From a virus, in the IMG/VR virus record IMGVR_UViG_3300023174_000159, positions 1 to 64,000 of that record: a DNA stretch of 64,000 bases; one strand, written 5' to 3'. Shown here in pieces: positions 22,087-25,687 of this stretch; the stretch's first letter is position 1, and every line of letters starts with the position of its first letter. A program made the translations under genes and the position numbers. The notes beneath the pieces were generated by a model that was not told where the DNA came from, ran no database searches, and saw only the letters and a program-made list of their open reading frames with translations.

Positions 22087-22497
22087 CATCTTTCGATGTT
22101 CTTTTAAAATTTCATTAAATGCTTTGCCGACATTGTGTTTTTTTGATGCTAAAACAATAAAACGTTTCATCAAAGCTTCAAAGGTTTTAATAATCAAAGC
22201 GTGTCTTTTACTAAATTCTTTATGTTTTGTATATTTTTTACCAAAAATTATATCTTCAAATATTTCTAATGTATAGCCCATGCTATCAACAGATATAGCT
22301 TCAATTTTTCTTTCTATTATTTGTTTTTTTGGCGGTGGTCGTTTTTTAATTTTTAAAATTTGTAAACGCAACTCTTCCATTTTTGGATTCATAAATGAGC
22401 CTTCATCTAAACCCTGTAGAGCATTTGATATTTTTTGATATGCTTCATTTTCAGCAACATCCAATCCCTTATTATAAGCTTCGTTTGCACTAATCAT
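22072..22497 (-). CDS. Hypothetical protein
   Basis: 141 residues, basic and helical (KIKKRPPPKKQIIERKIEAI). Begins MISANEAYNKGLDVAENEAY; the EAYNKG motif and its underlying DNA are repeated in the short frame just upstream. Its ATG overlaps the TGA of a 19-codon frame (ATGA). No recognised domain. Confidence 0.6.
   Translation of the reverse strand: MISANEAYNKGLDVAENEAYQKISNALQGLDEGSFMNPKMEELRLQILKIKKRPPPKKQIIERKIEAISVDSMGYTLEIFEDIIFGKKYTKHKEFSKRHALIIKTFEALMKRFIVLASKKHNVGKAFNEILKEHRKMLTSL
22465..22482. repeat. 18-bp direct repeat, copy 1
   Basis: TCCCTTATTATAAGCTTC, identical to 22567-22584, 102 bases apart. Encodes EAYNKG on the - strand in both places. Confidence 0.85.
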
Positions 22498-22553
22498 TGT
22501 GTTTCTTCTTGTTTTGTTTTATTTCTAGGTTTTCCTAATTTAACTAATCTCAT
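22494..22553 (-). CDS. Possible 19-residue coupled reading frame
   Basis: ATG at 22553 encodes MRLVKLGKPRNKTKQEETQ and stops in TGA overlapping the next ATG. It fills the gap between the polymerase C-terminal gene and the 141-residue gene. Could be a real micro-ORF or a relic of a longer gene. Confidence 0.25.
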   Translation of the reverse strand: MRLVKLGKPRNKTKQEETQ

Positions 22554-22596
22554 TTTTTCTATAGGTTCCCTTATTATAAGCTTCTTGCGCGGTCAT
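22540..22596 (-). CDS. Possible 18-residue reading frame with repeated EAYNKG start
   Basis: ATG at 22596 encodes MTAQEAYNKGTYRKNEIS. Its first residues resemble those of the gene at 22497. It could be a fragment of a duplicated gene start. Confidence 0.25.
   Translation of the reverse strand: MTAQEAYNKGTYRKNEIS
22567..22584. repeat. 18-bp direct repeat, copy 2
   Basis: Identical to 22465-22482; lies in the short frame directly after the polymerase gene. Confidence 0.85.
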
Positions 22597-22600
22597 ATAA

Positions 22601-23566
22601 TTAATTTTCTGAAAAGAAATCTAATAAATCAACTTTAACATTCTCGTTTGGCTTTCTTAAAATCCAACCAACAGCTTCATAAAAAAATTCAATATTTCTA
22701 TACATTAAATTTTCAAACATTTTTTCATAATCAATTTCAAATTCTTTTTTAAATTCTTCGGGATAGTTACCACCATATCCAACAACGTTAATATTATATC
22801 TGTTTTGCTTTTTAACATTAATATATTTGATTTTATCACCCTGTTTTAATTTTGGATATTTTCCACTTAATTCCAACTTATCTAATAATACATTGTGATA
22901 ATATGCAGCTTTCATATGTTCCTGCATTCCTTTGGAAATTTTTTCAAAACCATCACATTCATTAATATACTTATCAAAGGTATTGATACCACTTATTCTG
23001 GATATCATTTCATGAGGTAGTGTTTTAAAAGTTTCATAAGCTTGATTGAATAGATCATCAGATGTAATTTTATTTTTATCAATAATCATACTTTCTATAA
23101 TCTCTTTCAAATACGGTTTTAATTTTTTTGGCATTGTTGTTTTAACGACGGAAACGCCTTTGTATTTAAATTTATCTACTTTGAATCCTTCATCATCGAT
23201 CATATGAAGAACATAATATTTCTTCTTTAAGAAAATGCCAGAATCGCATATAGTTTCTCGTTTAAAAACAAAACGAGGATCTATACTTTTTAAGTCTTCT
23301 TTAGCCCAGTTTGTCATTTCTGTGTTTATATAATTTTCAATATAATCACAGAAATCTAAAAAATCTGAATTGATATTTCCGTTTTTATAAATCGGTATTC
23401 CCTTTTTATCTAAACATTTTAAAGAAACATATGCTGAATTATGTATAAGTATTTCGTTAGCAAAAAACCAAGGATTCTCCTGATCTTCCATTTCTATGTC
23501 GTATACATATTCATCTTGGAATTCTTCCAATTCTATAACTTCGAAATCTTTATATTCAATATTCAT
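22601..23566 (-). CDS. 43: DNA polymerase gp43, C-terminal part with intein C-half
   Basis: 321 residues. The first 43 form an intein C-terminal fragment: VYDIEMEDQENPW, FFANEILIHN with penultimate His42 and terminal Asn43, followed by Ser44 as the first extein residue. The extein continues SAYVSLKC, completing polymerase motif C, and carries the palm/thumb part including KKKYYVLHM and the C-terminal tail. Start ATG is in frame with, and nine bases after, the TAG that ends the N-terminal gene. After trans-splicing the two exteins give about 862 residues (T4 gp43 has 898). Confidence 0.88.
   Translation of the reverse strand: MNIEYKDFEVIELEEFQDEYVYDIEMEDQENPWFFANEILIHNSAYVSLKCLDKKGIPIYKNGNINSDFLDFCDYIENYINTEMTNWAKEDLKSIDPRFVFKRETICDSGIFLKKKYYVLHMIDDEGFKVDKFKYKGVSVVKTTMPKKLKPYLKEIIESMIIDKNKITSDDLFNQAYETFKTLPHEMISRISGINTFDKYINECDGFEKISKGMQEHMKAAYYHNVLLDKLELSGKYPKLKQGDKIKYINVKKQNRYNINVVGYGGNYPEEFKKEFEIDYEKMFENLMYRNIEFFYEAVGWILRKPNENVKVDLLDFFSEN
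23438..23566 (-). other. Split intein, C-terminal fragment
   Basis: 43 codons ending in His-Asn before Ser+1. Length and break position match the usual split site of natural split inteins such as DnaE. Confidence 0.88.
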
Positions 23567-23572
23567 GATGTT

Positions 23573-25687
23573 CTATTTAAATATCGTTGTAATGATTTTA
23601 TCACCTATATGATATTCTTTCGGTGAAATCCTAATCAACTTATTATTTCTCATCACCATAAGTCCATGATCTTCCGTCATTATAATTTCTCTATCTCCGC
23701 ATTTAATTTTAAATTTTCTTTTCGACACGCGATGACGAAATAATCTCCTAACTTTTGAAAATTCGGGAGATTTGGTTCCGTTCTTAGAAGTTAATATTTT
23801 TAACGACTCAACATCTAATAATTCATGTCCATGTTTGGTTAGTTTAATAGTTTGTTTTGAATATTCTTCGTTCCATAATTCATCGATTCTCTTATTGCCT
23901 GATGTAGTATGTAGTAAAGTATCCCCAACAAAACTATCAGTATCATTGTATATAATACAATTATTCAATTCCATTTCTGATAAATCTGGATACTTTTCAC
24001 TTAATGATTTTTTGAAAATTTCATTTGAATTCTTAATAACAGCCTGTCCAGTCAATGTTACCGAAGATGCAATATCATCATCTCCCATTGGAGCGTATGC
24101 ATTTCCCATATATCCATACAATGAATTTAAGTTAATCTTATATGCATATTGAATAGAGTCATATCTATTCTGTTCAGATTGAATGAAGGATCTTTCTTTT
24201 TTAGAAAGAGTTTTATCTTCTTTTAATTTTGTTTTACAATCTTTCATGGCTTTTTGCATTTTCTGCCTCTCAGAATATAACCAATCTAGATATTCGGGAA
24301 CAATTCCTTTTCGTTTCTGAGAAAATAAAAACCCAGCTTTTGTAAATGCTACTTGTTCAGCCTTGATATAATTTTCAAATTTTTCTTTATCAAATTCATA
24401 TACCCTGCCTGTTACATGATAAATTTTATATGTGTTTTCAAATTCTTCATATCTCCCAATTTTGGTTTCTGGTGATAGATTCAATGAAATCATAACACTT
24501 GGGTATAGAGAGTTAGCATCAAAACTCACCAGATTTTCAGATATACCTCGTTTAGGCTCTCTAACATACGCTCCTGGATTTTTTCCAATTTTTATAGGTC
24601 TAATAAAGGTTGGAATTCTTTGATTTCTTTTTCGTGCTTGGACAGCTAATGCACCGTTCATAATAGGAACGGTATCGATGGCCTTTTCGATATTAGTAAG
24701 TCCTATGTTTGCAAGGAATCTCAATGTCTTCATATATCGCAACTCATCATCCAATTTCACGAGAAGCTCTACATCCAGAATGTTATAGTCCACAAAGGTT
24801 TTCCAATCTCTAATTGAAAGTTCCCACAACTGACCTTCGTATTCTATTTTATTTTTACCAAGTTCTACTTCCGCAATGTAATCCAATTTATATGATTCCT
24901 GCTTATCAAGCTTAAACTTTTGATATAAAACCATGTAGTCAACTGAAGACACTCCTTCAATAACAATTTGAATCGGGGGTTCTCCAAATTTAACTTTCTT
25001 TTTTACCTTCTCATATATTCTACCAATAGGAGATAATCTCTTTTGCCATTCTTCATCTAATACAACAGCTATTCGATTTACTATATAAGGTATATCGAAT
25101 CCAGAACTATTCCATCCAGAAACTACATCTGGGTAATCAAGTTCCCAAAATTTAATGAAAGTTTTTAATAATAATTCTTCACTTTTACAATGAATATATT
25201 TTATTTTTTTATCTGTAATATGGGAAGTATCGAAAGGTTTTAATCCGAACGTAACATAACGCTCTTTTATAGAATCATAACAAGTTATTAGATTGATTAT
25301 ATCTTCTGGATTTTGAATATCTGGAAACTTTCCTTTATTACTAAAAGTTTCAATATCTATAAACATCACTTTGAGTGGATGTTTAGAAAAATTCTCATCA
25401 TTATTTTGATGCCAATAATTATCAATAAGAAATTGCTGCGCTGGTGGTAAATTTTCAAATATTCTTTTTATATTTGAATCTTTTAAAAATTTATTTCTTT
25501 CAAATCCAGAATCAAATTCTCTTTTTGTAATGTTAGTTTTAAATATGCTTTCTTCTTCTCCGTTTGGTTTTTCCAAAAACAGATAAGGATTAAAATCTAA
25601 ATCATATTTTACACGATTACCATCAGCATCCCATGAAAATAAATGGACACATCTTTCTTTATTATTGTAAACGCAATTTCTGTACAC
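23573..25687 (-). CDS. 43: DNA polymerase gp43, N-terminal part with intein N-half
   Basis: 704 residues, family B polymerase. The 3'-5' exonuclease motifs are present: MFIDIETFSN, VSGWNSSGFDIPYI and YNILDVELL. Polymerase motif A is SFDANSLYPSVM, motif B is KINLNSLYGYMGN, and motif C begins IIYNDTD at residue 584. From Ser585 the sequence is an intein N-fragment of 120 residues, starting SFVGDTLLH with block B TEDHGL, and ending at TAG. The start codon is GTG at 25687. It follows a glycosyltransferase gene by 31 bases. Without splicing the palm would lack the residues after motif C. Confidence 0.92.
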   Translation of the reverse strand: MYRNCVYNNKERCVHLFSWDADGNRVKYDLDFNPYLFLEKPNGEEESIFKTNITKREFDSGFERNKFLKDSNIKRIFENLPPAQQFLIDNYWHQNNDENFSKHPLKVMFIDIETFSNKGKFPDIQNPEDIINLITCYDSIKERYVTFGLKPFDTSHITDKKIKYIHCKSEELLLKTFIKFWELDYPDVVSGWNSSGFDIPYIVNRIAVVLDEEWQKRLSPIGRIYEKVKKKVKFGEPPIQIVIEGVSSVDYMVLYQKFKLDKQESYKLDYIAEVELGKNKIEYEGQLWELSIRDWKTFVDYNILDVELLVKLDDELRYMKTLRFLANIGLTNIEKAIDTVPIMNGALAVQARKRNQRIPTFIRPIKIGKNPGAYVREPKRGISENLVSFDANSLYPSVMISLNLSPETKIGRYEEFENTYKIYHVTGRVYEFDKEKFENYIKAEQVAFTKAGFLFSQKRKGIVPEYLDWLYSERQKMQKAMKDCKTKLKEDKTLSKKERSFIQSEQNRYDSIQYAYKINLNSLYGYMGNAYAPMGDDDIASSVTLTGQAVIKNSNEIFKKSLSEKYPDLSEMELNNCIIYNDTDSFVGDTLLHTTSGNKRIDELWNEEYSKQTIKLTKHGHELLDVESLKILTSKNGTKSPEFSKVRRLFRHRVSKRKFKIKCGDREIIMTEDHGLMVMRNNKLIRISPKEYHIGDKIITTIFK
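23574..23579 (-). promoter_or_regulatory. Possible late promoter box overlapping the TAG stop
   Basis: Reads TTTAAATAG: TAAATA seven bases before the ATG of the C-terminal polymerase gene, sharing bases with the TAG stop of the N-terminal gene. Confidence 0.35.
23576..23935 (-). other. Split intein, N-terminal fragment
   Basis: 120 codons from Ser1 (SFVGDTLL) with the TxxH motif at 87-90 (TEDH). No homing endonuclease domain. Inserted between the second Asp and the Ser of YNDTD|S. Confidence 0.9.

What the first reader, a model, noticed from the sequence alone, without database searches (positions are those of the whole stretch)
22601..25687. Split DNA polymerase joined by a natural split mini-intein
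The family B polymerase is encoded by two adjacent genes. The upstream one ends with a 120-residue intein N-fragment starting at Ser585 (SFVGDTLL, block B TEDH). The downstream one begins with a 43-residue C-fragment ending ILIHN before Ser+1. The break point (120 + 43) is the canonical site of natural split inteins, and the insertion is at the catalytic YxDTD|S motif. Exteins together give about 862 residues, a full-length gp43. Split inteins in phage replication genes are known from metagenomic fractured genes, but usually with an endonuclease gene between the halves; here only six bases separate stop and start.
Basis: partly seen in the sequence, partly recalled or inferred. Interest (0 to 1): 0.85.

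Follow-up and report, generated by a model that had tools for sequence, protein, structure and literature searches.

The report
Phage polymerase split intein lacking endonuclease
A T4-like phage makes its DNA polymerase in two pieces carrying matching halves of a protein-splicing element (a known type of split intein), but the DNA-cutting gene that normally sits between the halves has been deleted, leaving six bases and showing how such elements lose their mobility gene.

Summary
Two minus-strand ORFs (25687-23573 and 23566-22601) encode gp43 interrupted at YNDTD|S by a 120+43-residue split intein; the joined exteins (584+278) match the 862 aa of an intein-free relative that is 99% identical. 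The intein is a new member of a characterised family, the serine-type "Aes123 PolB1" split inteins of phage gp43. The modelled fold's best PDB match is the Aes123 PolB1 crystal structure (TM 0.86). Most relatives carry a VSR-like homing-endonuclease gene between the halves. The sister intein (L065, polymerase 78% identical) aligns with the window exactly up to the stop codon and again exactly from the ATG; its 1018 intervening bases holding the endonuclease are 6 bases here. So the split is inherited and the endonuclease gene was lost; an amber mutation or sequencing error in a one-piece intein is unlikely. The close spacing is not unique: relatives form a graded series (intact endonuclease, C-terminal relics, bare split, one-piece inteins), with at least ten switches forced on a tree of 30. 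Amber recoding is not supported. Trans-splicing is inferred, not shown. The insert was probably acquired recently: six of the few differences from the empty allele fall within ten bases of the site.

The parts
23573..25687 (-). gp43 N-part gene: family-B DNA polymerase N-extein plus intein N-fragment (704 aa, GTG start)
   Evidence: ORF; Pfam DNA_pol_B and DNA_pol_B_exo1; PHROG 262
23936..25687 (-). N-extein, 584 aa, ends ...IIYNDTD
   Evidence: 582 of 584 residues identical to intein-free L006
23576..23935 (-). intein N-fragment, 120 aa (Ser1, NX motif RH at 67-68, block B TEDH at 87-90)
   Evidence: fold
23573..23575 (-). TAG stop of the N gene, at the same alignment position as the TAA of sister L065
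23567..23572 (-). six-base spacer AACATC; stands where L065 has 1018 nt with a VSR-like endonuclease gene
22601..23566 (-). gp43 C-part gene: intein C-fragment plus C-extein (321 aa, ATG start homologous to that of L065)
23438..23566 (-). intein C-fragment, 43 aa (block F VYDIEMED, block G ILIHN)
22601..23437 (-). C-extein, 278 aa, starts Ser+1 AYVSLKC; coordinates include the stop codon
   Evidence: PHROG 262
23432..23437 (-). downstream flank with four base differences from the empty allele L006 (offsets 0, 1, 2, 5 from the insertion point)
23936..23939 (-). upstream flank with two base differences from L006 (offsets -1 and -4); the next difference upstream is at -130
22482..22567 (-). about 85 nt relic of a GIY-YIG/NUMOD3 homing-endonuclease gene just downstream of gp43 (intact in near-identical L024)

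Best explanation
The phage's gp43 DNA polymerase is translated as two proteins that carry the N- and C-halves of a serine-type (Ser1/Ser+1) split intein at the catalytic YxDTD|S motif. The halves associate, fold into a HINT domain, excise themselves and ligate the exteins into an 862-aa polymerase that is presumably functional. The element descends from a phage gp43 split intein that had a VSR-like homing-endonuclease gene between its halves. That gene was deleted down to six bases, while the original stop and start codons of the split were kept. Shown by sequence: the anatomy, the homologous break points, the empty alleles, the family membership and the missing endonuclease. Inferred: association, trans-splicing, translational coupling, polymerase activity and arrival by recombination from an intein-bearing donor.
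For: Anatomy and motifs. Intein-free alleles: L006 is 99% identical, has 862 aa, and of 19 differing codons 16 are synonymous. Sister L065: blastn alignment runs to within the stop codon (window 23574 = L065 4359) and resumes at the ATG (23566 = 5379); L065 has a 336-aa endonuclease between, 31% identical over 265 aa to the Aes123 'VSR endonuclease'. Intein tree: window plus L065 at 99/96 support. Endonuclease C-terminal relics of 115, 66 and 25 residues in L073, L027 and L075. AlphaFold2 pLDDT 95.3 and Foldseek top hit 9hth, Aes123 PolB1, TM 0.86. Published trans-splicing of Aes123 PolB1 and other phage PolB split inteins (PMC12707363, PMC10189870).
Against: No splicing, expression or read data. 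No second copy of this intein in IMG/VR by exact DNA patterns. The window's six bases hold no recognisable endonuclease sequence, so the deletion is inferred from L065 and the graded series. The C gene has no Shine-Dalgarno-like upstream sequence, but neither do most genes of this phage.
Confidence: 0.9

Rival explanations
1. It is a one-piece mini-intein with an amber codon, either a sequencing error or a recent nonsense mutation, so the split is an artefact.
For: Stop and start share one frame, and read-through would give a 166-residue intein of the same size as real one-piece relatives L070, L078, L080 and L089. TAG is otherwise unused as a stop in the window.
Against: The stop falls on exactly the alignment column where the endonuclease-split sister L065 stops, and the ATG falls on L065's C-gene start. 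The window groups with L065 at 99/96, not with a one-piece intein. In L075 and L085 the two halves are out of frame yet nearly as close together, so bare splits exist without any amber codon.
Confidence: 0.05
2. The TAG is read through or reassigned in this phage or its host, so that one long polypeptide is made and the intein splices in cis.
For: TAG is very rare as a stop: 1 of 66 counted genes in the window, 0 of 129 in relatives' loci, 0 of 85 in G003.
Against: A near relative (G001) ends 5 of 142 ORFs in TAG, at least two of them recognisable endonuclease-type genes. No convincing gene in the window becomes longer when TAG is read as sense apart from this one. No CUA-anticodon tRNA was found in the window or in G001 and G003, which carry 8 and 28 tRNAs. 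Homology to the separate start codon of L065.
Confidence: 0.04
3. The intein halves do not splice and the phage makes a two-subunit polymerase, or the gene is dead.
For: gp43 naturally encoded in two parts at another position, annotated as subunits (gp43A/gp43B), occurs in Aeromonas phages.
Against: All splicing residues are intact, the fold is confident, the extein codon changes against L006 are 16 synonymous to 3 amino-acid changing, and an unspliced 163-aa insert would interrupt the catalytic DTD motif.
Confidence: 0.05

Closest known systems
Aes123 PolB1 split intein (Aeromonas phages Aes123/Aes508; parent of the engineered CL and CLm inteins; PDB 9hth)
   Same: Same gene and site (gp43, DTD|S), Ser1/Ser+1, NX-motif RH/KH region, same break point, same fold (TM 0.86)
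   Different: Aes123 has a VSR-endonuclease gene between the halves; intein identity about 35%; the window has one cysteine at a non-catalytic position
L065 (IMG/VR 3300032312_002367) gp43 split intein
   Same: Sister intein, 58% identical, in a polymerase 78%/72% identical; identical stop and start positions
   Different: Retains a 336-aa endonuclease gene between the halves
[quoted passage not shown]
   Same: Typically split, Ser1/Ser+1 inteins of PolB with IntN of 115-120 aa and IntC of 39-46 aa
   Different: In the related Campylobacter phage F379 the halves are separated by about 1 kb; the gene arrangement of the other two was not examined
'Fractured genes' of Dassa et al. 2009 (split intein plus free-standing endonuclease; cited in PMC6892783 and PMC3229294, paper itself not held)
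   Same: Phage-type replication gene broken by a split intein
   Different: No endonuclease gene between the halves here
Neq Pol split intein of Nanoarchaeum equitans (named in PMC10189870 as the first natural cysteine-less split intein; site and gene order from own knowledge)
   Same: Split PolB joined by a serine-type split mini-intein
   Different: Archaeal, halves encoded far apart
One-piece gp43 mini-inteins of Salicola phage SCTP-2, Campylobacter phage CC_R7, L070, L078, L080 and L089
   Same: Homologous intein in the same polymerase
   Different: Single uninterrupted reading frame

Membership tests
Class 1 split intein | HINT fold formed by the two fragments together | tested here: met
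   AlphaFold2 pLDDT 95.3, pTM 0.89 on the read-through chain; top PDB matches are inteins
Class 1 split intein | Nucleophile at residue 1, TxxH in block B, block F Asp, C-terminal HN, Ser/Thr/Cys at +1 | tested here: met
   Ser1, TEDH 87-90, VYDIEMED, ILIHN|S
Class 1 split intein | Two separate reading frames broken in the typical split region | tested here: met
   120+43 split; both ends align with those of established split relatives
Class 1 split intein | Trans-splicing activity | not testable with these tools
   No experiment or expression data
Aes123 PolB1-type cysteine-independent split intein of phage gp43 | Serine at 1 and +1, and the NX-motif His preceded by Arg | tested here: met
   Ser1, Ser+1, R67-H68 invariant in alignment A1; motif described in PMC10189870
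Aes123 PolB1-type cysteine-independent split intein of phage gp43 | Sequence or structural homology and the same insertion site | tested here: met
   phmmer E=2e-17 to 9hth, Foldseek TM 0.86, DTD|S in nearly all
Fractured gene (split intein with endonuclease gene between the halves) | Homing-endonuclease gene between the two halves | tested here: not met
   Only six bases, no match to the endonuclease profile
One-piece (cis) mini-intein | Single uninterrupted reading frame | tested here: not met
   In-frame TAG at 23575-23573; no support for recoding

The most novel reading that the evidence does not exclude
Split inteins of phage gp43 are part of an evolutionary loop rather than an end point: after homing, the endonuclease gene between the halves is deleted step by step and the halves fuse again into one-piece mini-inteins, repeatedly and independently. 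The window is caught one stop codon before re-fusion. Support: the graded endonuclease relics, at least ten forced state changes on the tree, correlated intein and endonuclease distances, and one-piece inteins L078 (MSN) and L080 (MN) that keep a methionine at the old start position of the C gene. The opposite direction (repeated endonuclease insertion into one-piece inteins) is not formally excluded for every case.
Probability: 0.55. Interest if true: 0.6.

Novelty: new variant of a known kind. Interest (0 to 1): 0.42.

Why it matters
It adds an endonuclease-free member, with minimal spacing, to a family of serine-type split inteins used in protein chemistry. Compared with its relatives, it documents how the mobility gene of a split intein is lost. 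The series makes testable whether split inteins can return to one-piece inteins: a single codon separates the two states here. The intein-free allele at 99% identity gives a natural control for the effect of the intein on the polymerase.

Tried and rejected
Amber reassignment: suggested by the near absence of TAG stops, rejected because TAG ends genes in a relative, no recoded gene appears, and no suppressor tRNA was found. One-piece intein with a chance stop or sequencing error: rejected on exact homology of both ends to L065. Uniqueness of the close spacing: rejected, see L075-L077 and L085-L087. Shine-Dalgarno strength as evidence for or against the C-gene start: uninformative because most genes of this phage lack such sites. 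Exact-DNA searches for other copies of the junction in IMG/VR found none. The genome-contig scan with the IntN profile gave only two short, partial Bacteroidota hits, not followed. Substitution rates against L065 were near or past saturation and not used. The Dassa 2009 paper is not held.

Full report
WHAT IS THERE. On the minus strand, an ORF at 25687-23573 encodes the exonuclease and the first half of the polymerase domain of a family-B (gp43-type) DNA polymerase, followed by 120 residues of intein that begin at Ser585 directly after IIYNDTD. It stops at TAG (23575-23573). Six bases later (AACATC) an ATG opens a second ORF, 23566-22601, that begins with 43 residues of intein ending ILIHN and continues with SAYVSLKC and the rest of the polymerase. 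Pfam finds DNA_pol_B and DNA_pol_B_exo1 in the first and a sub-threshold Intein_splicing match; PHROG 262 (DNA polymerase) covers both parts consecutively, profile positions 19-582 and 581-852. Stop and start are in one frame, so the halves would read as one 166-residue intein if TAG were sense.

EMPTY ALLELES. A scan of IMG/VR returned 19 relatives. In the 18 that span the site (L006-L023) the polymerase gene is uninterrupted; L024 does not reach the site. L006 is 98.7% identical upstream and 99.8% downstream and encodes 862 aa, exactly the length of the joined exteins. The exteins differ from L006 in 19 codons, 16 synonymous. The differences are strikingly placed: six lie at -4, -1, 0, +1, +2 and +5 relative to the insertion point, and the next ones are at -130 and +831. 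All four codons concerned are synonymous. Four of the six window bases match the flanks of the intein-bearing relative L065 (ACT before, TCA after), while L006 shares AGT after the site with the other close empty alleles. This looks like a short co-conversion tract left when the intein was copied in from an intein-bearing donor; that is inference.

RELATIVES OF THE INTEIN. Profile and protein searches found homologues at the same DTD|S site (or an equivalent one) in Aeromonas phages Aes123/Aes508, Tenacibaculum phage PTm1, Campylobacter phages, Vibrio phage VPALA, Pseudomonas phages PA5oct/MIJ3, Lak phages and about twenty IMG/VR contigs. By sequence the closest solved structure is 9hth, E=2e-17. 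AlphaFold2 folds the read-through chain with mean pLDDT 95.3, and Foldseek's best PDB match is again 9hth, the Aes123 PolB1 split intein, TM 0.86. Published work describes a family of cysteine-independent (Ser1/Ser+1) split inteins, with CP21, LCGC14 and GOM-OPS-1 as further members having IntN 115-120 and IntC 39-46 residues (PMC12707363), and an NX-motif histidine preceded by arginine (PMC10189870). The window has all of these: Ser1, Ser+1, R67-H68, TEDH.

WHY THE SPLIT IS REAL. The sister intein in the tree of 30 sequences is L065 (support 99/96), in a polymerase 78% (N) and 72% (C) identical. A blastn alignment between the two loci runs from window 26819 to 23574, that is into the stop codon, and resumes at 23566, the A of the ATG. 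Between these points L065 has 1018 bases with a 336-aa gene related to the Aes123 VSR endonuclease (31% over 265 aa); the window has six. Both ends of the split are therefore inherited. A chance nonsense change or sequencing error in a one-piece intein would have to hit the homologous stop position and also find an ATG at the homologous start.

HOW THE ENDONUCLEASE WAS LOST. Classifying all loci gives a graded series: endonuclease-separated halves (about 960-1190 nt, 1.8 kb in PA5oct/MIJ3), reduced spacers (362, 343, 202, 116 nt), bare splits (stop to ATG 29, 11 and, here, 6 nt) and one-piece inteins (six in the tree). A profile of the endonuclease finds its C-terminal end, 115, 66 and 25 residues, still present in L073, L027 and L075. 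The inteins of L073 and L074 are nearly identical while their spacers are 342 and 1062 nt. Intein and endonuclease distances correlate across 16 loci (Mantel r 0.71, 0 of 5000 permutations), as expected if they travelled together. The four states are scattered over the tree, with at least ten changes forced for the endonuclease-bearing state. One-piece inteins L078 and L080 keep Met-Ser-Asn and Met-Asn where the C gene starts in split relatives, which hints at re-fusion after endonuclease loss; two of six is suggestive only.

TAG. This phage group hardly uses TAG as a stop (1 of 66 in the window, 0 of 129 in relatives' loci). I tested whether TAG could be sense. It ends five ORFs in relative G001, including a GIY-YIG endonuclease and an HNH-like gene; no convincing gene other than this one is extended by reading through it; no suppressor tRNA was detected in the window, G001 or G003. 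TAG is thus probably an ordinary, disfavoured stop that arrived with the intein DNA. Intein-bearing relatives use it more (7 of 42).

MECHANISM. Most likely the two ORFs are translated from one message, perhaps by re-initiation across the six bases (inferred). The intein halves associate, fold, and splice Asp584 to Ser+1, rebuilding the catalytic motif YxDTDS. Without splicing the DTD motif would be disrupted, so selection on the polymerase should maintain the splicing residues. Without its endonuclease the element can no longer home by itself.

LIMITS. One assembled viral contig (66.8 kb record); no reads, no expression, no host. The direction of change between endonuclease-bearing and one-piece states is argued from relics, not modelled.

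Noticed in passing
window 22482-22567: About 85 nt relic of a GIY-YIG/NUMOD3 homing-endonuclease gene between gp43 and the next gene; the near-identical contig L024 has the intact 258-aa gene (427-1203) and L006 has no insertion.
   Followed up: partly
L027 8207-10055: The UvsX recombinase gene in the same contig as a gp43 split intein appears to be broken by an atypically split intein: 16-aa N-fragment CITASQKIKVYEMKTM after GGPSQ, an endonuclease-like remnant, then an ORF with weak Intein_splicing and RecA matches.
   Followed up: partly
window and L006-L023, G001, G003-G007: TAG is almost absent as a stop codon in this T4-like phage group (0 to 3.5% of ORFs), without signs of recoding; cause unknown.
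   Followed up: partly
L025 7345-7580: The C-half polymerase gene seems frameshifted after about 77 codons (continues from 7535 in another frame); sequencing error or decay not distinguished.
   Followed up: no
L034 4341-5187: In Campylobacter phage F379 the endonuclease region between the gp43 halves is itself in two short ORFs, while the closely related CC_R7 has a one-piece intein; a good natural pair for studying re-fusion.
   Followed up: partly
window 1-64000: Most genes lack Shine-Dalgarno-like sequences upstream of their starts, as in phages of hosts that do not rely on them.
   Followed up: no
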